Source: Tubulanus polymorphus (lineage: Eukaryota > Nemertea > Palaeonemertea > Tubulaniformes > Tubulanidae). From it: a DNA stretch of 64,000 nt. Shown piece by piece: positions 15,642-61,689 of this stretch; position 1 is the first letter of the stretch; every line of letters starts with the position of its first letter. The stretch spans positions 969,855 to 1,033,854 of the forward strand of contig NC_134030.1 of NCBI RefSeq assembly GCF_964204645.1, in the 5' to 3' direction. The position numbers and the translations under genes were made by a program. The notes beneath the pieces are model-generated. The model was not told the DNA's origin and did not search any database. It worked only from the letters and a program-made list of their open reading frames with translations.

Positions 15642-18600
15642 CGCTGCTGCTGCTGCTTGTGTTAAGATTAAAACCCACGAAAGATTGAAAAATGAAATTA
15701 TTTAATCAATGATTAAAATCAAAATTTAAAAGACACAATATTTCAGGCTCCCTAGGGACCATCGTCAGAAGAGAGAATCCGAAATTTGATTTTAATTCTT
15801 GATAAATACGTTTTGGACAATAACCCGGTTCTCGTGTGTTTTCAAATCTAAATTTAATTTTTTTTCAAATTTTGCTTTTAAATTTGTACATATTGTAGGT
15901 TTCATGTGTATGGATAAATTTCATTATTTATGGGTTTTAATCTTATTATTTTCTCTACGCGTCTGAGTGTCCAGCGAGGCTTTGCTACAATTGCTTGTCT
16001 TTTTATGCAGTTTTTCATCACTTGCTTTTCATCGCTATCAAAGATAGATTTTATTGAATATAATGAATTCACATCGATAAGATGTGGATGATTTTTCACT
16101 CGCTGATCAGTGTGTGTTGGCATGTCAATTTATGGTTATATATTTACTGTGTTTTATATCAAAGATTTAGATGATCATAGACCCCATCCTGACTCTATGT
16201 AATAGATAGAAGATAATCCCTTTTTCTTGCGTAGCTTGAAGACAAATAAAGGTCTGTGAGATCAAGTCCTCCGTGGTTTAGATATGAGTCTTAAGTGTTC
16301 ACAGCCTTGGACATGTAAAGATAATATGCCGTTGAAATTAAAGATATATATTTATTGTCGCTTTGCTCTTTTCACCGGAACTGAAATTACTAAATAAACA
16401 CCTCTCAATTTTATGTAGGGTGCTTTGTAATTTAGTTTTAAGAATGCTTCCAGTTTTCTAGTGTAAACACTTAATGAATCAATTGACTGATTTGAATGCT
16501 GCTTGTCTCACTTATTCTCCACATTTCAAAAAAAGTTTTACGGCACTTGTCTTCAGTGTAGATGCATGCTTAAAAGTAGGGGTTCGGCAAGAAGTGATGA
16601 ATTAATGATTACTAGCTTTAAGGCTTAGCTTTTTTCGCAAAGTTATTATATTTTTGGAAAATTTCACGGGAGTATTCTATCACACCGATGAATTCTTGAA
16701 GTCCAAAAATAGTCGAATGACTGTCCACAGATTTGCTAGACAAGTAAGATGGTCTTATTAACCTTGACTAAGCCGCTGGCCCTTTTGAGTTTTATATCTG
16801 GGCCACTGTCATAAATAGTATGTATGTATAAGCAAGCATAACGTATGCCTGATAAAAAACTAATAAAACTGTTATCTTAGTCATGTATTACATATAGCAC
16901 TAACCTATGTATATTATGGTATACAGTTGTACCGGAACTTAGGCCCCTATGACGTGTCATTACTGAAACCTTGACCTTAATCTTCGAAAAAACATCAAAA
17001 CTTATCAGACGCAAATTTAATCATAAAAACTCTGTTCAAGTCGTCTCATTACTCAAAAATGTTTAATCTGTAAAAAAAGGAAAAGATAGTTCTTTATAGG
17101 TTTAATAACTAGTTTATTTATGATGCGAGCTTTTGCTACTAATGCAGTAACTTCATGGGTTCTAGACTCATTTACCCGATGAAGCCATAACTATATTAGT
17201 AGCTAAAACTTGCACTCTAAGTACTATTTGATTCTACGTTTGACTAATTCCACACCAGGGCCTGGTTTCTTAGACTGAGTATCAAAGTTATCCGTATAGG
17301 TAAATCCTCAATCTGGGTAACAACCATTGAAGTAATAATGAGAAACCATGGATATAACTGACATATTTCAAAATATTCCTTTGAACCATTTTGCTTTCAC
17401 ATCTATGAAACCCAGTCTTGGTTAACACAGGTCCTCTACAAAAAACTGTTTTCAAAAATTTTGCCCGACATTTTAAACGTCCATCTTACAGGAATATTTC
17501 ATTTGATTACTGATAAAAAAGTGTTGATGACATTTTTGTTTGATTATTTTTTACAGCAACAGTTACAAGCCTATGTAGCATGGACGAATTCACAGTTAAA
17601 ACGATTGAGTTCGGGATCCTATCGAGTCGTCGATGATCTTAGACATGATTTACAAGATGGAGTTACGTTAGTTCAATTAGTAGAGGTACTATGTAAGTAT
17701 CCTGATAACATTGCCGACAAAAATCAAATCATCTTAATGAATTGTTATTTAACCCTTTCAGTGCTGACTAATCAATACCCTAAAGTGCTGGAGATAATTT
17801 GAAAATTTTTAGAAATTCCACCCTAGTGTGTTGAATAACGGGAATACCACTATAGTGCGTCTACACCGCGGCGCGGTGTATCGTTAGTTACTAATATTTC
17901 ACTATGTTTGACACGTGCTGCCATTTTTCAAGAGAGATAATTACTAATGACTTATTACATCAATACACCGCAGTGTGGTGTACTAGCAAAATCCATCACT
18001 GATTTATACACTGCACTGCGGTGTAAACGCACTGTAAACTAACTTTAAGGAGCAAAACCCATGGTTGATGATTTAACAGTTTATTCTGACAATTTCTTTG
18101 ACTAGAAAAAATTTTGAAACTATCAGCGTAAACTGTTGAACCATCAACTGTCGGTTTTGCTCGTAAGGTATGAAGTTATTTATGTAATGTTGCTGTATGT
18201 TGTTTGTATTTGAAGCTGGTGAACAGTTAGAAGGTGTTTGTAGAACTCCACACGCCCTCACTCAGATGAAACAGAATGTGGAAAAAGTGTTAGAATTTAT
18301 GTCTAATAATCAAATTAGAATGCATCATACAACAGCGAAAGGTTTGTGTTAAAACTACAAAGTTCCATGGTTCCCTGAGTTTGACTCAGAATCGTTTTCA
18401 ATGCTTTCACGCTTGAGTTATATCTTAATCAACGAATCCTGGATCCACATCCACAGTGATGACATTTAAAAAATTTTTTTTCCTAGATTCTAAAAACTCT
18501 GACCAAATTTCTTCAATTTAGCTACGGTTATCAAAACGTTTTGAATTTCAAGAAATTTATTTTTTCGGATTTTATGAATTTTCAAATATTTCACTCATTT

Positions 18601-21600
18601 TCCTATTTGTTTAAATGAGAAAATTTTGTAAAAAAGTAAATATTGTGTTTTTTCTGACTATTATTGTAGATATCGTTGAGGGCAATCTGAAATCGATAAT
18701 GAGATTAATTCTAGCTTTAGCCGTTCATTATAAACCGAGCAGCGTAAAACTATCAGCGCAAAAACAGATGCAACGAGCTGGAGCTAAACAATCAACAGGG
18801 ACTACTCAGGTTAGTCATACTAGTGCTTAACTATTAACAATGACTTCTCAGGTTAGTCATATTACTACTTAACTATTAACAATGACTTCTCAGGTTAGTC
18901 ATACTACAACAGGGACTACTCCACAAATGCAAACATTCTAGGGGCTGATTAAGGGAAAAAGTAGTCCCTGTAGGCAGGTATGATATCTGAGAGGATGAGG
19001 TCAAATTTGCAGGTTTTAATGATCTCTGTCTTGATGATAAGGACATTTCAGTGGGAAAGGAAGGGACCAGATGCTGTTAACAACCCCTTTGTCTCCCCGG
19101 CCATTCTCCTCATGAACATCAATAGAATTTTACTAAACATTTTGAATGAAGATGAAAGAACAAAAAATTGTTTTTTTTTATTTCAGGGTTTACAGAACGC
19201 TGCAGTAGCAATAGCTGAAGCCAAACGTGAAGCGGTTACTAGTAATATTCATAAACTACATAAACCAGTAGAATATCAACAACATGTTGTTTCTAATAGG
19301 TACGTTTACAACTAACAAACTACACGCGTGCTCGTCTCGGAGCTTAGATATGTATCCAAATTGAGAGTGATATCAGAATTCAGATTTCAACTTGGGAGCG
19401 ATATCAGAATTCAGATTTCAACTTGAGAGTGATATCAGAATTCAGATTTCAACTTGAGAGTGATATCAGAATTCAGATTTCAACTTGAGAGGGATATCAG
19501 AATTCAGATTTCAACTTGAGAGTGATATCAGAATTCAGATTTCAACTTGAGAGTGATATCAGAATTCAGATTTCAACTTGAGAGCGATATCAGAATTCAG
19601 ATTTCAACTTGAGAGCGATATCAGAATTCAGATTTCAACTTGAGAGTGATATCAGAATTCAGATTTCAACTTGAGAGCGATATCAGAATTCAGATTTCAA
19701 CTTGAGAGCGATATCAGAATTCAGATTTCAACTTGAGAGCGATATCAGAATTCAGATTTCAACTTGAGAGCGATATCAGAATTCAGATTTCAACTTGAGA
19801 GCGATATCAGAATTCAGATTTCAACTTGAGAGTGATATCAGAATTCAGATTTCAACTTGAGAGTGATATCAGAATTCAGATTTCAACTTGAGAGCGATAT
19901 CAGAATTCAGATTTCAACTTGAGAGCGATATCAGAATTCAGATTTCAACTTGAGAGTGATATCAGAATTCAGATTTCAACTTGAGAGTGATATCAGAATT
20001 CAGATTTCAACTTGAGAGTGATATCAGAATTCAGATTTCAACTTGAGAGTGATATCAGAATTCAGATTTCAACTTGAGAGTGATATCAGAATTCAGATTT
20101 CAACTTGGGAGCGATATCAGAATTCAGATTTCAACTTGAAAGTGATGATATCAGAGTTACGATTTTTCAAAACGATTACTTGTTAAACAATGTTTGAACT
20201 GTTAGTTTCCATTGACAAAATTCAATTGAAGAAAAACCCACCATCACGAAATAAAACTGAGGGAGAAAAATCAAAGCTGTTTTGAAAATATCTCAAAGAA
20301 TTGAATTTGATTCATCGAATCATTAAACTCTTTGAAAAGTTTTTAAAGGTTTTTCTCTTCAAGAGAAATCTCATGCTGTACAAGCAGACATGTTACATGC
20401 ACATGTGTGAAAACTACATGTACATGTTGGTTGAAGAAATCACCTATAAATATGAATAGAATTATCTTCATAATTTTCAGGCCACAAGACAGAGAACATC
20501 GATTCAGTTATTTCAAACCACCACCGATCACTACAGCGGTCGTAAATAACACCAGGTTCGAAGAGTCATCAGATCACGCCAGTAGTTGTAATAGTCCGTT
20601 GGGAAGTATCTCAGTTAGTCCGACATCCAGTATTAGAGTATCTAGTCCAACGAGTAGCGAAGACATACAAACAACTAGTAAATCATCGTCATCACAACCT
20701 AAACAACAACGAGGTAGAAATTATCTTAAACATTACATTTCAACTCAACCTCCCCTCCCTTTCTGTTCCCCCCTCCATTACTCTCCCTCCCTCCCTCTCC
20801 CCTCCCTATTTATTCCCTCGCCCCCTCCCTCCCTCCCTTTCTGTTCCCCTCCCTCCCATCCTCTCCGGCCCTCTACCCTTCCACCATGTACACAATCTAA
20901 AGTAGGCAATTTTTTTCCCTCTCCCTCCCTCTCTCTGTACCCCTTCCCCCTCCCCTCCCTTCCTCTCCGGCGCTCTCCCATGTGTGCATACCTATCAATG
21001 CCCCTGTAGTACAATCCCTCTCCTTTATCCCCTCTTTCCCTCTATATTCTCTCTCCTCTCTCCTCTCTTCTCATTTCCTCTCTCTCTCTCTCTCTGATAT
21101 GGAATAAGAGAGAGTTAGTTCACTCTTACTGTGATTGTTTTTAACACTTGGTAAATCTCTGTCAGATCAATGAAAGTATGAATGAATTTAGTTTATAGCG
21201 AGATTCACTGTAGTTCACACGTGGACTGTATCGCTCATATCACCACAGTTCAATAGTTCGCCATTTTGATTTCCCAGATTGATGATCGTTTTGTGAAATG
21301 GTTTGTGGATTTTTCTGTTCGTTGTGTTTTGTAGCCGATAATTCTCCAGACGTCGACGAATCGGAATCAATTGAAATTTACAATCAACTTCTCTCGCAAC
21401 ACAACGACATCGAAATCGATATCTCGGATACTAAACAAACTCTCATCTCATTACAACAACTTGTAAGTATTACACATCACAAGGGTTAGTTGCACTGTAA
21501 AGGCTTAAATTTAGGGCCAGTCTAAACACTTTTTGGTTCTATAGCCAATCTAACAACTTAAGACCAGTCTAAACTCATTTTAGTTCTATAACCAATCTAA

Positions 21601-24600
21601 CAACTTGAAACCCGTCTAAGCTCGTTTTGGTTCTATAACCAATCTAACAACTTAAGACCAGTCTAAGCTCATTTTGGTTCTGTAACCAATCTAACAACTT
21701 AAGACCAGTCTAAGCTCATTTTGGTTCTATAACCAATCTAACAACTTGAAACCAGTCTAAGCTCATTTTGGTTCTATGACCTATCTAACAACTTAAGACC
21801 AGTCTTACGATTTAAAACCACATTTGGATTTAGGTCATAATTGGCTCCTGAATCCATGAGTCTATGATTCAGGACCCAGTTCCATAGTTCTGGACCACAT
21901 TGTGAAATTAGGTCGAGTTCTATAGTTCAAGTTGGTTTAGATTTTGTCTTTGGTCTCAAGATACAGCAATCACTGAAACTTAATTCATAACAGACCGTCC
22001 TCGCTTACCAGGGCTCGTTTTCTGAGCTGATCAGTTGTATTATGTTGTATTGTAGTTGTTGCACGATCAGCCACCAGATGGCGCGGAGGAAGCTCCGATA
22101 TTCGAAGGATCGTCTGCCGAGGAACAAATCGTACGTGATTATAAAATCCGTCTGCCGTCGTCTGTCAACAACAATGTAAACCGTTATTTTTAAAATGTCA
22201 TTCATTATATTGATTTTAAAGGTTATATTCAAGAGTAAATTACAATTAACGGAACAACAATTACACGAGTGTCACAACGAATTATCAAAAGTAAGGAGCG
22301 AATGTATGCAACTACAAGGTACTAAAGTAAGTAGCCCATATTGCACTAACATTATTAGTCATTTCTAGTCACTTTGATTCGGGACCCAGTTTAGTTTGAA
22401 ATGTACATTTGTGCCATATTTTATTAGTTATGATTGGTGCTATAGTGACAAATTTAATTCATTTCCAGAGCCAACAATTCATTCAAAACCAACTGTTCCT
22501 GATTTTCAGTATTTGTGACTATTTTAAACGAGAAATACTGATTTAATTTGTTCGATACATTTGCAGAAATATGAAAGGGTCTTCCTGTTGATTACTGATT
22601 AATTTGCACAGAAGTATGAAAGATGTTACTGTGGTTCTTACTGTTGATTACTGATTAATTTGAACAGAAATATGAAACATGTTACTGAGGGTCTTTCTGT
22701 TGATTACTGATTGATTTGAACATTTTCTCTCATATTATCAATGAAATGTTACGGAAAAAAATTCAATTTGTTACTGATAGCAGTTTTCAGAGGTTGGCAG
22801 CCAATGTTTTGAATCTATAGAGTATAATTTCAACTCTCCTAGAGCCGTATTTATACAAAGGATTGTGGATGTGAACTGAGGTCGACTGTTGGCATCATAA
22901 CTTATAATATCTTGTTTTGATTTTTTAGACCGGTCTCCAGCAACGTCTAACCGAACAAGAAAATGCATTTTTACAAATGAAAGCTGAATTTCTGCATAAA
23001 GAGATCACGCATCAGAACATAGACAGTGAGAAGGTAAATGAAATAACCCTAAATTGGGGTCAGGGTTGGGGGGGATTGGGGTCAGGGTGGGGGGGATTGG
23101 GGTCAGGGTGGGGGGATTGGGGTTAGGGTGGGGGGGATTGGGGTTAGGGTGGGGGGGGGATTGGGGTCAGGGTTGGAGGGGGGGATACCGAGCAGTGAGC
23201 ATCACAGGTTCTAAAACAGGCTTCCTAAAGATCAGGGAAAATCTGGAAATTCTGACTCTTCTTAGAAATCATGGAAAATTCAGTAACCTCTTGATAAGAA
23301 ACAGCCCTCACTGAGGATATCTTATAATTTAATCAGAGAATTTGACTGTTTTGGTGTCTTGTTGTTCTTGCTGGTGACGAGTGACACAAGGAACCTCTTG
23401 ATAAGAAACACTGAGGATCTTGTAATTCAATTAGGGAGTTTATGGTCAAGGGTCCTGGACCCAGTTCCACAGTTGTGAGTTTAGAGTTAACTCTGAGTTA
23501 AAATTAGTTCATTTTCAATGAGTTAACTCAGGTTCAAATCTTAACTCTGAACTGTGGAACCGGACCCCGGAAATAGAGAAATATCAAGGTGTGTTTACAA
23601 GTGCTCAAGTTTATTTTTTGTCTGCTCTTTTGTTTTTTAGAGTGAATTTCAGAAACGTTTGAATGAAAAAGACAATCAACTTAAAGATCTAAGAGTAAGT
23701 ATTCAACTGCACTCTCTAGATCCTCAATGTTAGTTACAAAAAATAAATCTGAAAATATTCAATTTCCTGCAGAAGTTGATCATATTTTAATTCCTTAAAA
23801 GCGTTTCACATTGTCAAAATATCAAAGTTCTCCTACATAATTTAGAAAATAATTTAGAAATTATCTATCAATCAATTAGAATATTTGAGCTGCCTCTTAA
23901 GAAGATATTTAAGGGTGATTATAATTTTCACAATATTTTTGATCGATTTTTCAGAAAGAATCGACGCATAAAGATCGCACAATAAAACAACTGAAGGTTT
24001 GTTAGTTTTAAACGCGGATTTCTCACACTGAATTCTCCATTATTTCTGTTACTGACGCGTGATATTTATTTCTAGGAGGAATTAGAACATCAAAGAGAAG
24101 AACGAGATGCGTCGGTGCAAGCGCTCAGAACTCATATACAAACACTCAGTGAAAAACTACAGAAAGTTGGTGAAACTGAGGTAGAGTAGGAGTTAACTTT
24201 TCTGAGATCAGTTGCTCAAAAATATGATCTGCATGAGTTATGTAGTAACAAACCCTTGTTTCAGTTCCACAGTTCTGAACCCTGGATTCAGTTCCACAGT
24301 TCTGAACCCTGGATTCAGTTCCACAGTTCTGAACCCTGGATTCAGTTCCACAGTTCTGAACCCTGGATTCAGTTCCACAGTTCTGAACCCTGGATTCAGT
24401 TCCACAGTTCTGAACCCTTGTTTCAGTTCCACAGTTCTAAATCCTGGATTCAGTTCCACAGTTCTAAATCCTGGATTCAGTTCCACAGTTCTGAACCCTG
24501 GATTCAGTTTCACAGTTCTAAATCCTGGATTCAGTTCCACAGTTCTGAACCCTGGATTCAGTTCCACAGTTCTGAACCCTGGATTCAGTTTCACAGTTCT

Positions 24601-27562
24601 GAACCCTGGATTCAGTTTCACAGTTCTGAACCCTGGATTCAGTTCTGCCATTCTGACCTAATTCAACTCCAGTGATAAACTTAGCTGAAAGAACTGATGA
24701 ACTGAGTCCTGTTGTTAATATAGGAGATTAGATTCTCTGATATTCTAATTTTTGCTGTGTTCAAATTGAAGGCTGCCCTATCGGCTCGCGTGGCGTCTCA
24801 GGATCGTAAAATGGCTCGATTAGAAGGCAAAATGAAACAAGAAACTCAGTCTAATTATCAGGGAACGTCTCCAAATAATGTAAGTACAGTGAGAGGACCA
24901 TCCCCTAATGAAACATCTTGCAGTAGATCCAGTTAAATCCTAATTTATTAGGATTTTTATTTACGGTTAATTTGTTTAAAATGTAACCATTAATGAAAAC
25001 ATTCTGAGTCCATGCTGCGATGATAATATCATAATGTTTCCTTGAGCTAGTGTAGTTTATTTCTACGTGACTATATCCAAATATTCATCTTCAGGAATAT
25101 TTGATAGCAGTTTGGAGCTGACTATTGGGATATAGTTGAAACGTTGAGTACTAGCTTAAGTAACCATTTTGTATTAAGCTTGTTTGACCGAATCACTATT
25201 TGTTTGACTGTATCGCAATAAGACATGAAAGTAGAAACATTGAGTTGTATTTATTATGATAGAACTGTATTCAGGATTTCACCGCTGGTCGAACGGAACA
25301 AATAGAAGTTTTACAAGATTCAATCCGTCAACTGCGTTATAATCTACCGCACGATGAACGCAACCAGGTGGCGCTAGATACTCTAGAACATACTCTATCT
25401 AATATACTGACTAGATACAGCCATATACAGTCTACACAATCTAAACAAGTAAGTTTTAGAAATACCCTCCCAGTAATTCAGGATCCAGTTCTACAGTTCC
25501 ACTGTTCAGGGTCCAGTTCCACAGTTCTGGATCCAGTTCCACAGTTCTGAACCAAGTTCCACAGTTCTGGATCCAGTTCCACAGTTCTGAACCCAGTTCC
25601 ACAGTTCTGAATCCAGTTCCACAGTTCAAGGACTCAGTTCCACAGTTCTGAACACAGTTCCACAGTTCTGGATCCAGTTCCACAGTTCTAAACCCAGTTC
25701 CACAGTTCTGAACCCAGTTCCACAGTTCTGAACTCAGTTCCACAGTTCTGGCTCTAGTTCGAAAGCTTTGAATTGTTAATAGTTTTAATATAAGGTAAAA
25801 CGACTGTTTAACTGGGTTCTGAGTTTCGTCTATATAACTTTCAGTTCAAATAACATTATTGTTACATTATTGATTTTTAGAATAACAGTGGTGACGCCCT
25901 CTATAGTAGTAGTAGTGTACTAGATGGAAGGTCGTCGTCTGCAGCTGCGTCTGTGATGTCATCGATGATGTTCGATTACGATCGTTTAGATAATGGGAAT
26001 AACACGTTAGATCACAATTCCACTAAAATACTCTATTTCTCTGATCACACTGTTACACCATTCATGTGTACAATACCTAAACGGTAAGACTAATCCCACT
26101 CTCCACTCCGTATTCTCCACTCCCCCACTCCCCCTCCCTACTCCCCCCCTCGCTGCTGGCAATGTATCCCACCCTGAATTAGCCATTCATGTGTACTGTA
26201 CCTAAACATTAAGATTGATCCCACTCTCCACTCCTCACTCTCCACTCCATACTCTCCACTCTCCCCTCTCACTGCTGGCAATGTATCCCACCCTGAATTA
26301 GCCAATACTCCACTCTGGCAGATCTGGGGGCAAAGCCTTCATCCAGTTGAGCGGTCTTCCGCAAAGTGCTGATGAAAAACTAACCTACTAAATGATTGAA
26401 ATATTTTATATTTCCAATGTAATTCTCTGACCAGAAATTCCACAGGTATTACATGAAAACGCATCTCAATTTGGTGCCCGCTCGGATCAGTTGCACTTCT
26501 CGAAATCAACCTACGGGCCCTCACTTAAAATACGGGTACTATGTCTATCCCCAGGCTCCTATACCTGAATTATGTATTTTGATGTATCTTTTACAGATTA
26601 GGTTTGGTAACATTGAAAGATTTCAAACAAATCTACGACAGACAAGGAAATTTTAGATATCATTTCAAATCGTTGGATCCAGAATTTGGAACCGTTAAAG
26701 AAGAGGTAATTAATTAACATAAATTAACATAAATTATAGACCATCCAATTATTCAATCCTTGAATAAAGAAGAGGTAATTAATTAACATAAATTATAGAC
26801 CATCCAATTATTCAATCATTGAATAAAAAAGAGGTAATTAATTAACATAAATTATAGACCATCCAATTACTCAATCATTAAATAAAGAAGAGGTAATTAA
26901 TTAACATAAATTATAGACCATCCAATTACTCAATCATTAAATAAAGAAGAGGTAATTAATTAACATAAATTATAGACCATCCAATTACTCAATCATTAAA
27001 TAAAGAAGAGGTAATTAATTAACATAAATTATAGACCATCCAATTACTCAATCATTAAATAAAGAAGAGGTAATTAATTAACATAAATTATAGACCATCC
27101 AATTACTCAATCATTAAATAAAGAAGAGGTAATTAATTAACATAAATTATAGACCATCCAATTATTCAATCATTAAATAAAGAAGAGGTAATTAATTAAC
27201 ATAAATTATAGACCATCCAATTATTCAATCATTAAATAAAGAAGAGGTAATTAATTAACATAAATTATAGACCATCCAATTATTCAATCATTGAATAAAA
27301 AAGAGGTAATTAATTAACATAAATTATAGACCATCCAATTACTCAATCATTAAATAAAGAAGAGGTAATTAATTAACATAAATTATAGACCATCCAATTA
27401 TTCAATCATTAAATTAACATAAATTATAAACATCCGATTACTCTCACATTAGTTCAGGATTTAGAAGTTATTGATATATTTTTATAGATCAGCAATGATG
27501 ATGATATTTTGCCCGGTTGGGAAGGTAAAATCGTCGCGTGGATTGAAGAGGATCACGGTTAG
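12561..27562 (+). CDS. DIXDC1: Dixin (DIX domain containing 1), Wnt/Dishevelled pathway protein
   Basis: Cytoplasmic regulator that binds Dishevelled and Axin through its DIX domain and actin through its CH domain. Body exons: 17557-17692, 18216-18341, 18670-18809, 19187-19299, 20481-20713, 21335-21462, 22056-22130, 22222-22326, 22929-23033, 23641-23694, 23955-23996, 24076-24180, 24772-24879, 25275-25448, 25881-26083, 26597-26705 and 27488-27562 (stop TAG). Every junction is GT/AG and in phase. With MDVQ the protein is 680 residues; human long form is about 683. Order: calponin-homology domain (about 5-115; [35 protein letters not shown]), Ser-rich linker (about 177-255), coiled coil (about 265-495), linker, DIX domain (about 601-680; [35 protein letters not shown]). 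Introns are unusually rich in minisatellites. Identity is very sure; the 5' start is uncertain. Confidence 0.94.
13125..13324 (-). mobile_element. tRNA-derived SINE with 11-bp target-site duplication
   Basis: About 200 bp. On the minus strand the head reads as a type II (Ser/Leu-like) tRNA, with A box TGGCCGAGTTGG and B box GGTTCAAACCC. It is followed by an unrelated body and a short A tail. The 11-base direct repeat AAACCATAAGT flanks it at 13114-13124 and 13325-13335, which proves target-primed insertion. It lies in the first dixin intron. Confidence 0.88.
15566..15660. repeat. CTG/CCG trinucleotide tract
   Basis: Interrupted GCTGCTGCC repeats in the first dixin intron. The open frame here encodes only an alanine run. 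Confidence 0.8.
17100..17225. mobile_element. Palindromic element, AACTAGTTTA family, dixin intron
   Basis: The arms GATGCGAGCTTTTGCTACTA and TTAGTAGCTAAAACTTGC are inverted, with CTTCAT.../...GATGAAG in the interior. Confidence 0.5.
18060..18175. mobile_element. Palindromic element, GATGATTTAACAGTTTA family, copy 1
   Basis: Inverted arms GATTTAACAGTTTATTCTGA and TCAGCGTAAACTGTTGAACC in a dixin intron. The same family occurs in the dixin 3' UTR. Confidence 0.6.
19361..20147. repeat. 31-bp minisatellite, about 25 copies
   Basis: Nearly identical units containing GATATCAGAATTCAGATTTC with few substitutions (GAGAGTG/GAGAGCG). Units abut without spacers. It lies in the dixin intron between the exons ending at 19299 and starting at 20481. 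Confidence 0.95.
20745..21095. repeat. CT-rich low-complexity tract
   Basis: CCCTCCCT / CTCTCT pyrimidine-rich stretch directly after the dixin exon ending at 20713. Confidence 0.8.
21493..21850. repeat. Tandem array derived from the CTTAAG palindrome
   Basis: About six to seven 47-bp copies containing TTGGTTCTATAACCAATCTA and AACTTAAGACCAGTCTAAGC, which are internal parts of the CTTAAG family. It lies in a dixin intron. Confidence 0.75.
23050..23182. repeat. G-rich 20-bp array
   Basis: GATTGGGGTCAGGGTGGGGG units, with four or more G runs each, right after the dixin exon ending at 23033. Confidence 0.8.
23451..23570. mobile_element. Palindromic element, GTTCCACAGT family (dixin intron)
   Basis: The inverted ends GGACCCAGTTCCACAGTTGT and ACTGTGGAACCGG flank AACTCTGAGTTA-type inner repeats. 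A relative lies at 32771-32879. Confidence 0.65.
24255..24655. repeat. 27-bp minisatellite, about 15 copies
   Basis: CAGTTCCACAGTTCTGAACC plus CTGGATT. Because 27 is a multiple of three, it leaves long open frames on both strands. It lies in a dixin intron. Confidence 0.93.
25480..25760. repeat. GTTCCACAGTTCTG minisatellite in a second dixin intron
   Basis: About 13 copies of a 20-21 bp unit, the same core as 24255-24655 with different joining bases. Confidence 0.9.
26696..27415. repeat. 59-bp array that copies a splice donor
   Basis: About 12 units, each with TAAAGAAGAGGTAATT, the end of the dixin exon (26705) plus its donor. See findings. Confidence 0.93.
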
Positions 27563-28606: not shown

Positions 28607-29555
28607 GTGGTTGTTCCTTTTTGTTACCGCTAGGGGGATCTGACCTTGTATAGCTGCTGCCCCCTACTGGCATCTATAGAAACAAGAATGACTTGTATAT
28701 CCGGCTGCTGATCCGGGTAGCGATGGCGAGTACTGCTTAGATATGAATATATTTATTGTAACTATTGCCATGCACCGCAGCCATGGATCACTTGAGGGCG
28801 CAGTCTTGGGGGGGGGGGGTCCACCGCCGCCCCCAGAGAGATGTTTGAATATAATACACATTACATGAATGTGTTTTCATTCCATGGCCCAGCGACAACA
28901 GAAATACTCTAAACCAATCCCCCATTCGACAAAAAGATGATCGGATTCCTTGGTCACTTTAAATCACCGGTGTAGACTCGTCAGCATGTTGCGCGTTCTC
29001 AACACGTGCAGTGCATCAGCGAAACTGTCATCATTGGAAAGATTAATATGGGAGATGCGTAAAATAATTCTAACATATAGCCACACACTGACGTGGAGAA
29101 CAACTAATAAGTTTAAAACCCACTACACGACGATGATCTCGAGTGAGAGTTCGACGTTGTGTACGTACTTTGATTTTAATTCTTAATGATTAAAATTCGC
29201 CTTCAATCTCTTAAATTCTGAATATAGTCGGTTTTAAACTTATAATTTGAACAAATATAATTGGACATCGATACAACGACACGTGTTGGAACATGACACT
29301 GAAAGTTGTTGCACAAAATCACGGTAATGACACTCTGGGAAGCTCGTTTTAGAATCTAGAACATTTTAATGATGGATCAGATGTCGCTTGTCACAAATAA
29401 TTGGTGGTTGAAAAATGTTGAATTCTAGAATTGCTGGAGGAAAGCAAATGATACAAATCATAAACGTTAGTTTAATCTCTCCACACTGAGTAGGGAAGGA
29501 ATTCCGTTCGTTGCATTTTGGTGAAGATTGCATCGTGATGTTGTAGTCCGGTAGA
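28607..29555. other. Spacer between dixin and the GRL101-like receptor
   Basis: About 950 bp holding a G run (about 28808-28820) and otherwise unique AT-rich sequence. The receptor promoter and any 5' UTR exon would lie here; I see no certain core promoter element. Confidence 0.5.
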
Positions 29556-32500
29556 ATGGAACAGCGACTGAGAGCGTGGTTTATAGCGTCGCTGATCGTC
29601 TGTCAAGTTCGCATCGCACACGCTGATCGCGCGGACTCAACCGAGGAATCGTCTGTGATGGTTACTTCGTCTTGTAACAATACTTGGTACCCGGTCGATT
29701 CTAAGTCCGGTTACATCGTTTCACCGAATTATCCGTTGTTAACGCGCGGTGTTGACTGTGGTTGGTTCATCAACTGCTCTTTACCGGGAACTTTTCACGT
29801 CCAAGTTTACTTCAATATTGAGCCGTCAATATTCTGTAGTGATAACTACCTTCTCGTCGGTGAGTCCGATAACAGATTCTGCGGCGATGGAAAACATGAA
29901 ATCAGTCGCAAAGATTCGATCTCGTTGATGTTTAGGACTAAGGTCGATGGTGCGCGGGATAGTCGAGTTTATATCATATATCGCCATGAACGAAGCCGAT
30001 TGAAAATTAGTCACAAATGCAGCAATTATTATGTCCAATTGACTAAATTGCCAACATCGTGGGGATACAAATACAACATAGGCCTGCTAAGGAATTGCCG
30101 GCTGTTCTTGGAATGGGTCGGGATGCCAGATGATTTTGGTTTTAATTTGACTTTCACGGAAGTAGATTTCAGGGAACGCTCAATTTCGGTGACGGCAGCT
30201 AAAATCTACGACGGATGGAACAGCAGCAGTGAACCTATAGGTCTTATACGAGAACAAACCGGACATCCACCTTCATCATTCTATACTAAAACGAATAAAG
30301 CCATTTTATCTTCGACAAATCCTCAACAGTATCTTCGATCAGTGCTGTTAATTCAGATGTATAAAATATCAGATTGGAACGTCTCTAATCCGTTAATTCA
30401 AATCTCTAATAATCAGTCTGGAGTGCTCATTCCTGATGACAACAGTTTACACGTAATAACTCGATCAAAACACTTACACTGCTGGTCTATCACAGTGCAA
30501 GTGTTACAGTACGTCGTCTTCAACTGGACACGTGATCTCAGCACATCCGGTGATGTCATTGGTATATATAAACTAGAAGGGTTACGCGTTGTAGGAACTG
30601 ATATTTTACTCGGTTACAACCACCTGGAATCACTGAGTGTCAAATCTGAAGGCTTTCTCGTCGTACTGTGCGTTCTTTTAAGAGATGAAGTTATTATGTC
30701 GATCGTAGAAATATTTTACAAAGTAAATTCGCTATCGATAGATGATTTGGATGTTTCCAAATCGACGGTAAGTATTTCATAAGTTATCAAAAGATTTCAG
30801 ATAGTTATTTCCATGAATTAAATTGCGTTAAAAGAATTGACTTCTATGATCAAAATGAAAATAGAATTTCTAATATAGGTAGCTATAACGTAGGTTATAA
30901 ATGTTGAATTTCTAAAAGCTATGCTCCAATTCAAACTGTTGTTGATATTCATACTTACAAATAAATACAACGAGACAAGTAGTACTTTATAAGTGTAACT
31001 AGTTTAGCACGAACTTGCGCTACTATAGCTTCATCAGGCGAATGAGTGAATGAGATGTGACGTGTTTGACAGAGAGTGAGCACAAACCTGAACACAGACA
31101 CTATAGTAGCAGCTTCATCGGGAAAATGAGTCGAGTTCATGTAGAAACAATGCAGTATTTCAAAGGGCATTCCGTCCTGTGTTTCTCCAATGAATTTACT
31201 CATTCGCCTGATCAAGCTACCCTATATTAGTAACGAAAGCTCGTGCGTCTAATAAACTAGTCACACCTATAAATTACTATCCATCTCGTTGTTTCTATTC
31301 TACACCCGGTTAACACCAGGCTACTTTAAGAATGTATTTCAATATGAATGTTTATAATGTGATAATTGACGATGGAATTATTACAGATCCAGATCCCCAA
31401 TGAATGCAGGTACTCATACGCACTATTGCCGTTGCTGAATAGAAAAACGTTCACGTATCGGGTGACTACACATCGGTTGAAATGGCGAGTGGATATCACC
31501 GAAAAACAATTCGAACTTACCGTCTTATCAGGAAACTGTGAGCGAGCTGGATTTTACATATACGACGGTGGTAATTTCACAGCTAGACGTTACGGTCCGT
31601 ATTGTCCAGGTTTGAACAGATACGACCGCAACATCGTCAGTCTGATTACATCAGGTGGACCGGTTACTGTGTTAGCATACGCTTATAACTGGGACGGTCA
31701 GTTAACAATCCATAAGAAACTTTCGCAATGTATCATGTTTCAACCTACTGACTGTGACGGGTATGTTTTGAAGGAGGGAGAAAGTCAGATCAATATGACG
31801 TCACACTGTGTCGTGATAACACCTGAAAACCGGCGCCTTCCTTTGAGAAAAATTTATATATTATCAGAACACGAATATCAAATTGCCGAATGTCTCCCGG
31901 AACATGTAACCTATTTATCGTGCAATATGGATATCAGAGCGAGCCTTATCAAAGGTGATACAATCAAGAGAAATTTAGTATTAAACGAGGTTACATTAAA
32001 AAGTTCTTATTCATTTTTGGGTAATCCCCTAATACTGAAACTGAGACAAAAGTGCCTGGAAGTTAAAAAGAAGCCTGACAGGGCAAACGACTTGTGTGGA
32101 CTGATACAGTCACCGAACTACCCGGCACCCGCGGGTTCCACTGTTCAGACTAAATACTATGCGGTTTATTATAAATATGATTATAGACGATTTCGTTACT
32201 ACAGATTCATGATAAAATACTTTGAACCGATTGAATGCGTTAAAAGATCCCGACTTGATAAAGATCCAGTCTTGTTCGTAGAACGTATGAAAGATGTCGA
32301 ACACACTCTAACAATCTGTGGACGTCACTCGGGGCATACGCTTTTTAGTCTTTCGAGTTATGAACATAATTTCCGAGTGAAAGACAGAATCCCAACGTTT
32401 CAAATACAATATGTTCTTGAGGAATCGTTACCAATAAAAGAGTCCGACAATGAGTGTGAAGTTGCTTTTCTAGATTCGGGAATTTCCTGCATAAAATATA

Positions 32501-35500
32501 TCAGAGATAAACGTCTGAATTGGGAGAACGCTGAATTGTATTGTAGACAGAAGTACGCGGGGCATCTACTCAGTATCAACTCAGAACAGGAGATGATTTC
32601 TATTAAAACATTATTCGCTACGAAACTACTTCTTGATGCATATTCACAGGAAGCGCTTATAATGATGATTGGATTGAAACTACAGGTAAATTATATCAAA
32701 TAAGGATGTAAAATGCAGGTTTCGTTATATATGATATAAATCGACGACACATTACCTACACTTTCAAAATTCTGGACCCAGCTCCGCAGATGTGAGTTAA
32801 GATTTGGTTCAGAGTTTACACATTGAAAATGAACTGATTTTAAATCAGAGCTTACTCACAACTGTGGAACTGATCTGAGAATTTATAACTAAGGATCCCA
32901 TGATTTTCGATATCACGATTTCACAATATTGTTTGTACTTATTATATTATGTTCTATTCTAGTTGAAAACTGGTAATTATTTATGGTCTGACGGGAAACC
33001 GATGAGTTATACAGAGTGGTATATACCTACAAATAACGACACGATACCAGAAGTTATTCAAGGATTGATATCTCCTTTAAGAAAACAACCAGTGAGTAAC
33101 GTTAATATGCCGTGTACGGCGATGATACTGAATAATCCACGAGGATCAGCGAACTGGATTAGATTTCCCTGCGGAATCGAAGAGGTTCACACGAGTTTCA
33201 TTTGTGAATCGGAAATAGTTGACAATAAAACTCGAAGGAAACTAGAAGTTGAGACATCAAATTCTACAAATCAAGACAAACTTTTTCCACGGGAAACTGC
33301 ATTTAAAACCACAAGTTTCGATGACTCGAGTTGTACGATTGGTTGGGTAAGCATGAATAAACGATGCATTCAAATATTGACGGACTGGAACAAACATCGC
33401 TCATTAGATATAGATAGTGCGACAGAAATGTGTCGTGGCATCCGTGGTGAAATAGGCGCAATAGTAAGTCACACTGATATAGAAATTATAAACTTAATAC
33501 AAACATTTCACTATCAACATCAATATGGCTCAATACTGGCGATGGCTGCTAATGGTGGACTGCTGGTTATAAATCCAATAATCACTAGAGATGAAATTAC
33601 TCATGTTCAATCAGTTAAATGGACGATTAATCGGTTTGAAAATGTAACAGATACAGCGCATTCTGTTTTGTGTTCTTACAATGTAACTGGTGAAGAGTTA
33701 GCTTCTATAAGCGGTTGTAAATCGTGGCAGTTTAAATGTAACGATCAAAGATGTATCAGCGACCATCGCGTATGTGACACCAGAAATGACTGTCAACACG
33801 GTGAAGATGAACTTAATTGCTCGGACATCAATTTACATAGTCAGTTTCACTGCTCTGATGGTCAGGTTATATCAATCAGTGGTTTCTGTGATTTCATTCA
33901 GGACTGCGTGGATGGTTCTGATGAGAACTCGTGTTTTCATTCCGCATGTTTGTCCGAACAATTTCGCTGTAGCAGTGGTCAATGTGTGAGTAGGTTTAAA
34001 AGATGTGACGGAGTTACGAATTGTAAGGACGGCTCCGATGAGAAGGAATGCGCCGCTGAACTGTGTCAGGGATTTCTGTGTAACAGTGGAGACTGTATCA
34101 GTGTTCAGTTGTATCAGGATGGTGTCGTGGATTGCAGTGGAAGCCTAGAAGAGGATGAGTTAGTAACTATTGTTACAGTGAATCCTATGGTTCTTTGCAA
34201 CGATGGAAACCAATGTTCGACTAACTTCACAAATCTCTGCATAGAATCTGATGAACAAAGGTGTTCTTTCGATTCTCCTCATTGTTATTCAAGACGTCAC
34301 AGATGTATTCTAGAAAGAATGACGAATGGTTACCCAGTTTGTAGAAATCTTGAGCATGTATTGAGATGTGAAGAATTTGAATGTCCAGCTGGTACTGTGA
34401 AATGTCCAGCATCGTACTGTATACCAATCGGGCAGGTGTGCGATGGTCAATCAGATTGCCCTAATTCAGAAGATGAGCAAAACTGCGAGACATTTTCATG
34501 TCCAGGAATGTTTAAATGTGGTCAGGAAAATCGATGTATTCCACAATCCGAAGTTTGTGATGGTGTCGTAAATTGTAAACATACAATCGATGACGAGGCT
34601 TTCTGTAACGTCGCGTGTCCTAGAGGCTGTCAATGTCAAGGTCATCGGATTGATTGTGGAAATACTGGTTTATCAAATATAACTCGACTTTTCTCGGCAT
34701 CAACTCGAGTTTTAATTTTGTCCGATAACCACATTTTCGTGGATAAGTTGACGTTTGTTTCATACGGCTATCTGCGTATCCTCAACATCTCCTCAAATGA
34801 ATTAACTTTTATTCTACCAGAGTCGTTCAAAAATCTGCATAATCTACATACATTAGACCTTACACATAACAATATAACATTATTATCCGCGGATACATTC
34901 AACGGTTTGCATAGATTAAAAGAGTTATTCATAACTGAAAATCCAATTCGTTACTTGCAACCAGACAGTTTCCGAGGTTTGAGGTCACTCGAAATGTTGG
35001 ATCTTCATGGACTTCTGATATTGATGCTTTCTAAACATGTTTTTATGGGTTTATCTTCATTACAAACGTTGAATATCAGCAGTAACAGAATCAACTATAT
35101 TTCACTTTACGCATTTTCTGGCTTAACTTCACTTGTAAGTCTTGATATGATGCACAATTATAAAGTTATTTCTGCCAACAGAAATCTTTTCGACAATCTG
35201 ACATCGTTGGTCTCCCTGGCATCCGATGCTTACAAATTTTGCTGCATGGCTCCGAATGTTGACCAGTGCCTTCCCGAAGCTGATCAATTTTCCTCCTGTT
35301 CTGATCTGATGGGTAACACAGTCCTCAGAGCTATCATCTGGGTGATCGCTTCATTCAGTTTTTTCGCTAACGGAATCGTCATTTCTCTTCGTGTTCGAGC
35401 GATTCGATTCTCCTCCTCAAATCCATCCTCAGACATCATCATCATCAATGTTGCTGTGTGTGATTTTATGATGTCTATATATTTGTTTCTGATCGCTGGA

Positions 35501-36214
35501 ACCGATTACATTTATAAAGGTAACTACTTTCTCCATTCTGAATCATGGACGGACAGTTTGTTTTGTCGTCTTGCTGGAATCGTGGTGTCTATTTCTTGCG
35601 AAGGATCATTGACATTTTTGCTCGTCATGACGCGTCATAGATTTTCAAACATTGTTAATCCATTTTCTGGAAGTCCAATAACATCTCCGAGACATGTGTC
35701 CGTTATATGCTGTCTATGTTGGATTTACTTGTGCACTATTGCTACACTACCTCTTGTCCCTCTCCCTTATTTTGGACGTAACTTCTACGGAACTACAGGA
35801 GTTTGTTTACCTATGAATTTAATTTCAATTGATGTCAATGCCTGGCAATATTCATTCGTGATTTTTGCTGTATTTAACTCAGTCCTACTTGGTACAATAA
35901 TGGCAACTTACGCGCAAATGTACAGACTCGTTTCTGGAAGCAGGTCCGGTTCGGGCAGAGCTGATCCGACCGAACTGATTTTAGCACGCAGGAGTTTGGT
36001 GATAAATCTTTGTAATCTATTTTGCTGGATGCCGTTAATTACCGTTCAGGTTTGCGCAGTTTTCCGGGTAGAAATACCGAATCAAGTGGCGGCTTGGCTG
36101 GCGGTACTGTTCCTACCGATCAACTCGTCACTGAATCCCCTGCTTTACACAATACTGACTATCGATATGAAATCCATACTAGCTAAAACTAAACGCAGGC
36201 AACATAGGAAATAA
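29556..36214 (+). CDS. GRL101-like receptor: CUB / C-type lectin / LDLa / LRR / 7TM
   Basis: Predicted surface receptor of about 1920 residues in three phase-0 exons: 29556-30767, 31387-32685 and 32963-36214 (stop TAA). Domains in order: signal peptide (about 1-24); CUB-like modules (about 40-150, 160-270, and a clearer one near 638-745 with CGLIQSPNYP); C-type lectin domain split by intron 2 (about 760-917); a second degenerate lectin-like domain (about 961-1074); six LDLa repeats (about 1088-1388), four with six cysteines and SDE/EDE calcium sites, two lacking cysteines; a cysteine-rich LRR cap (CPRGCQCQGHRIDC, about 1389); about six LRRs; and a rhodopsin-type 7TM (about 1627-1910). TM7 keeps NPLLY; the DRY site reads TRH. 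LDLa plus LRR plus 7TM is the layout of snail GRL101 and the relaxin-receptor group. The ligand is unknown. Start chosen for the signal peptide. Confidence 0.9.
30768..31386 (+). other. Receptor intron 1
   Basis: Phase-0 intron (GTAAGT...TTACAG) between CUB-coding exons. It is nearly half occupied by a palindromic element at about 30990-31266. The small open frame on the other strand lies inside that element. Confidence 0.75.
30990..31266. mobile_element. Palindromic element, AACTAGTTTA family, receptor intron
   Basis: Outer arms GTGTAACTAGTTTA... and ...TAATAAACTAGTCACAC, with inner CTTCATCAGGCGAATGAGT / ACTCATTCGCCTGATCAAG arms. A shorter relative lies at about 17100-17225 in the first dixin intron. 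Confidence 0.65.
32771..32879. mobile_element. Palindromic element, GTTCCACAGT family (receptor intron 2)
   Basis: Left end GGACCCAGCTCCGCAG and right end CAACTGTGGAACTG are inverted, with the same inner GAGTTAAGATT / AATCAGAGCTTAC pattern as the dixin-intron copy. Confidence 0.6.
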
Positions 36215-40860: not shown

Positions 40861-42732
40861 AGTTTGTAGTGATCAATTACTTTTACATAATGCAGTATTA
40901 AGTGTAATGAAATTCAAAGATGCTCTGGTTACAAGCATGCTTCAGTTTCTGATCGGACCATGCCATCTCTCTTTTTATGACTGGATGCATTTTTAGAAAC
41001 TTTACGGCATTAATTTGAATGAATAGATAGTTTACGGTAAACAGTTCAGCGGCTGTGATTAATACAAGTCTCAAGTCACCGTCTATTGTTAACTTTATTG
41101 CTACTTATAATTTACGAATCATCGACACGCGAGACATAAGCATACCAGAAACAGCGATGTGTCGGTGCAGAGAATACAGTACCCCACCAGGAGAACCCAG
41201 CCTTTAGTCGTCGGACCACAGGAAAACTGCGGGCAGAAATTGGTCTTCAGTCTTCGAACTGCTGGAGTTGTTTTCAGTGAAAGTATACACACAGAAAGTG
41301 AGCCAATCAGACTGTCGCCACCCGCCACACACTAAACTGTATAACTATTAGTCTAGTATTGAATATCACCACATGGGGGCGCTTTCTCGTAAGTTGTGGG
41401 GGTGTGGATTAATTAACCGAGATTAGAATTAAGTGCCGGAGTAAATATGGAGTAAATATGGATTATTCATCGTCGAGTCAATAAAGTATGAATCATTTAA
41501 TAATTAAAAATGTACTCGCATTTCATAGAGAGTAACAATGAGTGGTTGCTAAGGTTGCCTGTATGCTGGTTGCTAGGTATAAGTGGCTGTTATATAGCGG
41601 ATATACTCTCTCATGTTCTCGTGTAGCGTAAGAGTGACACTTCAATTGATCAGCATTCAACAAAAAACCTGCGCCATAAAAAACAAGATTCCGATCGTGG
41701 CGTAGAGCTTCACCACAAACATGTCATTCCTCTTTTACACAACATAAATACATTTCACAATTATTTACTTCGATTTAAGCAAAAAAATCTGTAAACTCGA
41801 CCGCCGATCACACAACTATATCTGCACTTCGATTTCCAGTTTCAAAATCAAAGGAAATCTACCAATTAAACAAATAACACGGTCAATCCGTATACCTAAA
41901 ACACTCAAACTGCATTCGAAATTTATATCTGAAAATTATTTTATTATTATCATTTATTTATTGTATACAAAATGTTGCTTTTTCAAATGAACGAATGAAA
42001 TTCAAGGTTAAATTAAATTAAATCAACACAATGTAAGACAAATACTAGAAAACAAAATATCAAAATTGCGACATAATTTACGAGTGAAAATTCATTATCG
42101 ATATCATATTTTTCCTATTATCATTATTTCTACATTTCTATAATGACATAAAGTTTAAGCATCAATGAATTAAATACATTTTGAGAAGAAAATTTTTTAA
42201 ATCCTAATTCATTTTTTTTACACAAAGTTGACATGAATATAAAAAATTAATTTAATTACATTTTCATTATTAGTATCTAATTATAATTATGATAATGATG
42301 CATAGACTGAAAAACTGGGTTTAGCTGAAAAAGTCATAATTTATCGAAACATTTGTACACAGGTTTTTGTTTTTTAAATATTAGTAACAAACATGACACA
42401 GAAATCTGTGGTAGGCTTTAGTTTGACACATTGAAATCATGATTACAGATACTAAATGTTAGTTTATGTTATATTGTAACATCAAGAGAATATTTTTACA
42501 CTTTGTTTTGAACATTATTTGAGAATTTGATGAATCCAGTTCCATGGGGGTGAATCCAGTTCCACAGTTGTGAATCTAGTTCCACAGTTCTGGGTTCCAC
42601 TATTTTGAACCCCTTTCCATAATGACATTCAGTTAAGTTCAATTCGACAGAGTTGTAAATTCTAACAGAGCTGTCGGTTCAACGGTGAGTTCATTTCAAA
42701 ATACAAATTTACTGTTAAGTGAAATTCTACCC

Positions 42733-43620: not shown

Positions 43621-44140
43621 TTCTTTGAGCTAGTGTAGTTTATTCAACGTTTCGACTAAATCCTAATAGTCATCTTCAGGAATACTGTATTCCTTGAGCT
43701 AGTGTAGTTTATTCAACGTTTCGACTTTATCCTAATAGTCATCTTCAGGAGTACTGTATTCCCTGAGCTAATGTTGAATAAACTACACTAGCTCAAGGAA
43801 TACAGTATTCCTGAAGATGACTATTAGGATAAAGTCGAAACATTGAATAAACTACACTAGCTCAAGGAATACAGTATTCCTGAAGGTGACTATTAGGATA
43901 AAGTCGAAACATTGAATAAACTACACTAGCTCAAGGAATACAGTATTCCTGAAGATGACTATTAGGATATAGTCGAAACGTTGAATAAACTACACTAGCT
44001 CAAGGAATACAGTATTCCTAAAGATGACTATTAGGATAAAGTCGAAACGTTGAATAAACTACACTAGCTCAAGGAATACAGTATTCCTAAAGATGACTAT
44101 TAGGATATAGTCGAAACGTTGAATGAACATTAGCTCAAGG
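43621..44140. repeat. Inverted tandem array of a 70-bp unit
   Basis: Two units in one orientation (to about 43770), then five in the other. Each has CTGAAGATGACTATTAGGAT and GTCGAAACGTTGAATAAAC. A diverged copy lies at about 25030-25150. Confidence 0.85.
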
Positions 44141-45599: not shown

Positions 45600-45926
45600 A
45601 ATAACTCCCGGTGACCTCCAGTACGGGGAGGACCCGTGTGACACCGATGTAGGGAGTACTCCCGCGTAATTCCGGTTCTAGTACAGCGGATAATTCCACC
45701 AGTATGGGGAAAACTCCACAACTCTGATAAGGATAGGACTACAGCGATGTGACTCCATTATGGGGAGAACTCGGCCCGCGTGAGGTACTCCAGTCTCATA
45801 CGGGGGTCGATGTGACTCCGTTATGGGGAGGACTCCCGCGTCAGGTACTCCAGTCTCATACAGGGGTCGATGTGACTCCGTTATGGGGAGGTCTCGGCCC
45901 GTGTGAGATACTCCAGTCTCATACGG
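45600..45926. repeat. VANGL 3' UTR minisatellite overlapping the stop codon
   Basis: Three clear 60-64 bp copies (GATGTGACTCCGTTATGGGG ... TACTCCAGTCTCATACGG) plus decayed copies. The copy nearest the gene contains the TGA stop at 45921-45919. Confidence 0.85.
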
Positions 45927-61319: not shown

Positions 61320-61440
61320 GGTCCACTCATTAGGATCCAGTTCCACAGATCAGGATCCAGCTCCTAGGATCCAGTTCCACAGATCAGGATCCAGCTCCTA
61401 GGATCCAGTTCCACAGATCAGGATCCAGCTCACAGAATCC
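61320..61440. repeat. GATCCAGTTCCACAGATCAG array
   Basis: Four to five imperfect copies sharing the CAGTTCCACAG core seen in the dixin introns. Confidence 0.75.
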
Positions 61441-61689
61441 AGTTGCATATAGTTTGATCCAAGGTTAGACTTAGTAATATGTTCATTTCCACAGTGTTAG
61501 TTTTGACTTTAATTTTGAGCATACAAAAACATCTCGATTCAACGGACGGCTAATTACGATTCAAGAGAGGCTTCTAGGTATAATGTGAACAAATGTTTTA
61601 AATGAAGTTAAATGATTTAATGTAGATAGTTTAAAGTCGGTGAGCCTCTGATTTTAATCTATACATGTTCACGGATTTGTCCCATTATA

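What the first reader, a model, noticed from the sequence alone, without database searches (positions are those of the whole stretch)
26597..27562. Tandem array that duplicates a splice donor about 12 times inside the DIX domain
The 59-bp repeat starts in the last ten bases of the exon and includes the donor, TAAAGAAGAG/GTAATT. About 11 perfect decoy donors therefore follow the true one. Using any decoy, or keeping the intron, reads GTA ATT AAT TAA and stops, removing the end of the DIX domain ([10 protein letters not shown]). Splicing must pick the first donor, or else array length tunes how much functional dixin is made.
Basis: partly seen in the sequence, partly recalled or inferred. Interest (0 to 1): 0.72.

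Follow-up and report, generated by a model that had tools for sequence, protein, structure and literature searches.

The report
Minisatellite repeating a dixin splice donor
A short piece of DNA that spans the end of one exon of the dixin gene has been copied in a row, leaving eleven exact look-alike splice signals behind the real one; similar arrays are known in lancelet genes, where splicing was reported undisturbed, so this is a striking new example of a known oddity rather than a new kind of switch.

Summary
A 59-bp minisatellite begins in the last ten bases of dixin exon 13 and repeats the donor: AAGAG|GTAATT occurs 12 times, one true donor and 11 decoys. Using any of the 11 decoys, or keeping the intron, ends the protein at VKEEVIN* inside the DIX domain. 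A genome-wide pattern search found the junction word only at this locus (12 of 12 matches), so it most likely arose in place.

The reading that array length tunes dixin output is not supported. The same gene carries a second, smaller donor-repeating array at 18800-18907. Arrays fill 36% of the gene's non-coding span but hold only 20 exonic bases, which fits neutral minisatellites stopped at coding edges. Such junction arrays are known in lancelets as 'mirages'; globin RT-PCR and Adh data suggest that they do not disturb splicing (PMC3087553, PMC3902484; passages read). Human IFI6 is the counter-case, where repeat-borne donors are used (PMC4526556, passage read).

Verdict: a real new member of a known kind, with many perfect decoys. 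Donor choice was not measured, because no RNA data were available.

The parts
26597..26705 (+). dixin exon 13, carrying the middle of the DIX domain up to VKEE
26706..26711 (+). true 5' splice donor GAG|GTAATT, phase 0
   Evidence: gap-free dixin alignment across the junction
26696..27414 (+). 59-bp minisatellite that begins in the last 10 exonic bases and repeats the donor 11 more times (first unit 69 bp)
26775..27370 (+). 11 decoy donors AAGAG|GTAATT at 26775, 26834, 26893, 26952, 27011, 27070, 27129, 27188, 27247, 27306, 27365
26739..27389 (+). 12 acceptor-like sites TTATAG|AC, one per unit; 11 of the 12 lie 35 nt upstream of a decoy donor, the last has no donor after it
   Evidence: matrix from 14 acceptors of this gene only
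27412..27451 (+). diverged partial copy of the repeat without the donor, array's 3' edge
27488..27562 (+). dixin exon 14, last exon with stop TAG
18800..18907 (+). second junction-spanning array in the same gene: 42 bp x 2.6, donor CAG|GTTAGT at 18810 (true), 18852 and 18894 (decoys)
17557..27562 (+). dixin coding exons from a CH-like region (label recalled, not scanned) to the DIX domain: 14 exons, 13 introns, 624 codons plus stop, no internal stop; edges set by eye

Best explanation
This is a junction-spanning minisatellite of the kind called a 'mirage'. A segment running from the last ten exonic bases of dixin exon 13 into intron 13 was duplicated in tandem, then expanded and homogenised by slippage or unequal exchange. 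Splicing keeps to the first donor, so the copies lie silently in the intron. Shown here: the array, the decoys, their stop consequences, and the absence of the unit elsewhere in the search made. Inferred: the mechanism of expansion, use of the first donor, neutrality.
For: 12 identical donors in 59-bp register. The junction word was found only at this locus, 12 of 12 matches, so no dispersed element is likely to have brought it; the 7 other hits of the wider DNA search are other AT-rich repeats. Only 3 of 59 columns vary among the 11 decoy units, a young or homogenised array. The edge copies deviate most: a 10-bp insertion at the 5' edge, a diverged donor-less partial copy at the 3' edge. A second such array lies in the same gene, and arrays cover 36% of its non-coding span while holding 20 exonic bases, against 530 expected under uniform placement. 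Only first-donor use gives the conserved DIX sequence. GTs of equal or better matrix score that are not donors in the gene model occur elsewhere in the gene, 23 of 511 outside the array. For lancelet mirages, Adh3 data and globin RT-PCR are said to suggest no interference with splicing; a second paper says the same of Adh and TnC and infers it for PGBD5, whose splice sites are largely predicted.
Against: No transcript was available, so donor use is inferred. Each unit also carries an acceptor-like site, scoring 8.6 in 11 of 12 units; 6 of the 14 true acceptors reach that in leave-one-out, and 6 of 592 other AGs outside the array, so mis-splicing is possible. Conditional on arrays taking at most 12 exonic bases, two straddled donors in one gene is more than expected (mean 0.24, P 0.023; counting donors and acceptors together P 0.076), so placement alone may not explain them.
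Confidence: 0.86

Rival explanations
1. The array is a length-dependent rheostat: decoy donors (and decoy acceptors) draw off part of the splicing into transcripts with early stops, so array length sets how much full-length dixin is made.
For: All 11 decoys match the true donor from -5 to +6. All 11 lead to an early stop 57 to 647 nt upstream of the junction. Acceptor-like sites occur in all 12 units. Human IFI6 uses repeat units as donors (passage).
Against: No conservation or expression evidence was available. Authors of the lancelet papers conclude that mirages do not disturb splicing. A second, short array at another donor of the gene suggests a repeat-prone locus rather than a control device.
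Confidence: 0.07
2. The array is intron-gain raw material, or the intron itself arose from tandem duplication of an AGGT-bearing exon segment.
For: The dixin intron position (VKEE|ISN, phase 0) is shared with neither the Dvl-like nor the Axin-like gene of the same genome. The lancelet globin paper proposes that mirages can make new introns.
Against: By eye, the 3' end of intron 13 and exon 14 show no copy of the repeat. Differing positions among three old gene families do not date the intron.
Confidence: 0.04
3. Assembly artefact: the repeat count was inflated by the assembler.
For: Minisatellites are often misassembled (general knowledge).
Against: The units are not all identical: 3 columns vary in different combinations along the array and both edges differ. 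The contig is 23 Mb. Neither fact excludes a wrong copy number.
Confidence: 0.03

Closest known systems
Lancelet 'mirages' (Adh3, globins BflGb6 and BflGb9, TnC, PGBD5)
   Same: [quoted passage not shown] ordinary splicing reported or inferred (PMC3087553 and PMC3902484, passages read; the original Adh paper was not held)
   Different: Here 12 donors are identical from -5 to +6 and all 11 decoys give a stop. The globin cases have units of 150-160 bp, with 6 and 3 units in two haplotypes of BflGb6, and Adh3 units are 10-72 bp. The host here is an unnamed animal in which no GFP-family hit was found (no positive control).
Human IFI6 (G1P3, 6-16) minisatellite with multiple splice donors
   Same: A minisatellite supplies several splice donors
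   Different: In IFI6 two downstream repeat units are used as donors and the transcripts encode different isoforms (PMC4526556, passage; the 1995 paper seen only as a reference). Here decoys would stop the frame.
Intron creation by tandem duplication of AGGT-bearing segments
   Same: Tandem duplication copies a splice signal
   Different: No sign that this intron was born from the array; its acceptor side looks unrelated. The Gao and Lynch 2009 paper was not held, so only its mention in PMC3087553 was seen.

Membership tests
Mirage (junction-spanning minisatellite) | Tandem repeat unit that spans an exon-intron boundary | tested here: met
   Unit includes 10 exonic and 49 intronic bases; exon edge fixed by the conserved DIX frame
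Mirage (junction-spanning minisatellite) | Repeats carry splice signals | tested here: met
   11 of 11 decoys keep AAGAG|GTAATT
Mirage (junction-spanning minisatellite) | Regular splicing is undisturbed | not testable with these tools
   No RNA data; only protein conservation across the true junction
Mirage (junction-spanning minisatellite) | Length instability between alleles or cells | not testable with these tools
   One assembly only
IFI6-type multi-donor minisatellite | Downstream repeat donors are used and encode different isoforms | tested here: inconclusive
   Use could not be tested; if used, all 11 decoys would give the same truncated protein, VKEEVIN*, not a set of isoforms
Dispersed repeat or transposon insertion at a splice site | Same unit elsewhere in the genome | tested here: not met
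   12 of 12 matches with up to 3 mismatches lie in this array
Dixin (DIXDC1, Ccd1) | C-terminal DIX domain closest to dixin | tested here: met
   PF00778 4.3e-23; best PDB chains are dixin 2.6e-28 against Dvl 1.4e-12 and Axin 6.1e-8
Dixin (DIXDC1, Ccd1) | CH domain and coiled coil before the DIX domain | not tested
   The upstream exons were read by eye only; no family scan of them was made

The most novel reading that the evidence does not exclude
The array is a hypermutable chain of 11 decoy donors, each with an acceptor-like site 35 nt upstream, so that array length, changing between alleles or cells, sets a fraction of poison transcripts and thus dixin dosage in Wnt signalling.
Probability: 0.06. 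Interest if true: 0.62.

Novelty: new member of a known kind. Interest (0 to 1): 0.3.

Why it matters
Twelve donors identical from -5 to +6 in one transcript form a clean natural test of how a 5' splice site is chosen when the local signal cannot tell the candidates apart: only position and upstream exon context differ. It also adds a case to mirages, which the papers opened here describe only from lancelets, with a possible (unproven) extension to another animal group. It is not, on present evidence, a regulator of dixin.

Tried and rejected
Transposon or dispersed-satellite origin: rejected, the junction word was found only at this locus; the wider DNA search's 7 other hits share only AT-rich ATAAATTATAAAC-type repeats inside another dispersed element.

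Recursive (zero-length exon) splicing at AG|GT: rejected. AAGAG|GT scores -5.3 as an acceptor, below the lowest true acceptor of the gene at -4.8 leave-one-out (small matrix, and the margin is narrow).

Intron gain from the array: not supported. Naming the organism: no COX1 hit and no GFP-family hit, the latter with no positive control.

Base rate: 20 loci of 10 kb at places I chose gave 6.2% tandem-array coverage (period 10 or more) against 14.5% in the window, so the window is array-rich. Five thousand bases of one locus (L043) read N and were kept in the denominator. Two of the 20 loci (L037, L044) were placed at the other two DIX genes. In the 2 loci holding DIX exons of those genes that I ran through TRF, no array reached an exon end that I had identified. 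A genome-wide count of junction arrays was not possible.

Papers: searches on competing donors gave 2 off-target papers and 0. Searches on junction repeats gave 3 papers, 3, 9 and 18 with 8 listed. Of these I opened PMC3087553, PMC3902484, PMC12783039 (passages concern arrays within an intron) and PMC3188502 (its 'mirages' is an unrelated title in the references); the rest I judged by title and abstract start.

Full report
What is there. The window lies in a 268-Mb assembly of 77 contigs, at C6:969855-1033854; its genes look like animal genes. A gene on the + strand, 17557-27562, can be read as 14 coding exons with one stop, at the end. The exon edges were found by eye from AG/GT sites and frame, and the 5' end of the gene was not sought. 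Its last three exons encode a DIX domain; a 56-residue fragment from the last two matches PF00778 (4.3e-23) and is closest to dixin among solved structures (2.6e-28; Dvl 1.4e-12; Axin 6.1e-8).

The array. TRF reports 59 bp x 11.7 at 26722-27414 with 98% matches. In register with the splice site it begins inside the exon: ten exonic bases, 26696-26705, are shared with the unit. AAGAG|GTAATT occurs 12 times: the true donor at 26706 and 11 decoys, the first 69 bp on and the rest 59 bp apart. Only 3 of 59 columns vary among the decoy units; none lies within -5 to +6 of the donor, and one, at exonic position -6, differs in 2 units. This is what a young or homogenised array looks like and says nothing on selection.

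Consequences. All 11 decoys, and retention, give VKEEVIN*. The stop would lie 57 nt (first decoy) to 647 nt (last) upstream of the exon junction; by the usual rule, recalled, such transcripts would be candidates for nonsense-mediated decay. The lost part includes beta 5 of the domain. In mouse Ccd1, Lys446 and, in beta 5, Lys462 take part in the head-to-tail contacts, and a Trp466 mutant was tested (PMC5552852, passages). My placing of Lys446 in VKEE, just before the cut, and of Lys462 and Trp466 in KIVAW, beyond it, is inferred from the sequence match. A decoy product would therefore not be a normal DIX domain (inference).

(a) A second array in the same gene, 18800-18907, 42 bp x 2.6, repeats the donor CAG|GTTAGT of exon 3 at 18810, 18852 and 18894; both extra donors also give a stop. 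A pattern search with up to 3 mismatches found 5 places, 3 in this array and 2 elsewhere with 3 mismatches each. (b) Each 59-bp unit also has an acceptor-like TTATAG|AC, 12 in all, 11 of them 35 nt before a decoy donor. Scored with a matrix from the gene's own 14 acceptors, 11 of the 12 score 8.6 and one 6.6. Six of the 14 true acceptors reach 8.6 in leave-one-out, and 6 of 592 other AGs outside the array do. Inclusion of a 35-nt unit would also stop the frame, in 3 of 3 cases tried. The matrix is small. (c) A 60-bp array at the end of a VANGL-like gene (label recalled) on the other strand covers its last codon and stop, and repeats them so that GTATGA occurs three times.

Is it surprising here? 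Arrays with period 10 or more cover 14.5% of the window, against 6.2% of 20 loci of 10 kb at places I chose. In the dixin gene, ten arrays (merged by hand, shortest-unit repeats dropped) cover 36% of non-coding sequence but hold only 20 exonic bases. Uniform placement would give 530 exonic bases (none of 3000 trials as low as 20) and 3.8 straddled donors against 2 seen. If each array may take at most 12 exonic bases, the expectation is 0.24 straddled donors, with P = 0.023 for 2 or more donors, or 0.076 for 2 or more junctions of either kind. The limit of 12 was chosen after seeing the data. So arrays are common here and coding sequence is kept nearly free of them; two donor-edge arrays in one gene is then at most a little more than chance. 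Zero of 13 acceptors are straddled. Donors may be more tolerant, because copies fall downstream of the real site (inference).

Origin. The junction word was found only at this locus (12 of 12 matches), so the copies were most likely made in place. Dixin intron 13 sits at VKEE|ISN in phase 0; the Dvl-like gene is cut after DDDFG and the Axin-like gene at GNYK. Labels for these two rest on the DIX hit plus recall. The positions differ, which does not date the intron.

Which donor is used. No RNA is at hand. Only the first donor yields the conserved sequence, gap-free against dixin chains. The 12 sites are identical over the nine bases scored, so choice must rest on position or exon context. The gene has 23 other GTs outside the array, of 511 not used in the gene model, with an equal or better donor score, so such sites are not rare in the gene.

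What is known. Tandem repeats spanning exon-intron boundaries were named 'mirages' in lancelet. PMC3087553 (passages) reports them in globin genes at donor and acceptor sides, cites Adh3 and other loci, gives 6 and 3 units in two haplotypes, and says that Adh3 data and its own RT-PCR suggest no interference with regular splicing. PMC3902484 (passages) adds PGBD5, where the splice sites are largely predicted, and cites TnC and Adh as not giving aberrant mRNA. The Adh paper itself is not held. Human IFI6 is the opposite case: two downstream repeat units serve as donors (PMC4526556, passage). The present array is anatomically a mirage; the criteria of undisturbed splicing and of length instability could not be tested.

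Organism. No mitochondrial COX1 hit and no GFP-family hit (no positive control, and exons are searched one by one). With the genome size this argues weakly against a lancelet, where such arrays were described. In the paper searches on junction repeats the only papers I recognised as describing mirages were the two lancelet papers; two others were opened and do not describe junction arrays in the passages seen, and the rest were judged by title and abstract start. I therefore cannot say that the type is unreported elsewhere.

Verdict. The regulatory reading is possible but unsupported.

Noticed in passing
window 45745-45926: 60-bp array (2.9 copies) that covers the last codon and stop of a VANGL-like gene (label recalled, - strand) and repeats GTATGA, so the stop codon is present three times.
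   Followed up: partly
window 24251-24645, 25494-25750, 42531-42589, 61331-61444: Several separate arrays share a related unit around CAGTTCCACAGTTCTG (by eye from the TRF consensus units), as if one minisatellite motif had seeded many sites.
   Followed up: no
window 25040-25170 and 43621-44128: Similar sequence by eye (CCTTGAGCTAGTGTAGTTTATT and CTTCAGGAATA) in a dixin intron and in two adjacent 69-bp arrays of opposite orientation.
   Followed up: no
L002-L008: Dispersed AT-rich element seen at 7 places: palindromic stretches around AGACGTACGTAAGAATCC beside a central ATAAATTATAAAC microarray, with what looks like coding sequence nearby (by eye, not translated).
   Followed up: partly
window 29547-36214: Long open frames that look like LDL-receptor-A and leucine-rich repeats followed by a rhodopsin-like GPCR, like snail GRL101 (recalled, not scanned).
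   Followed up: no
window 48603-49162: 25-bp array beginning 27 bases after the likely donor of a VANGL-like exon without including it.
   Followed up: partly
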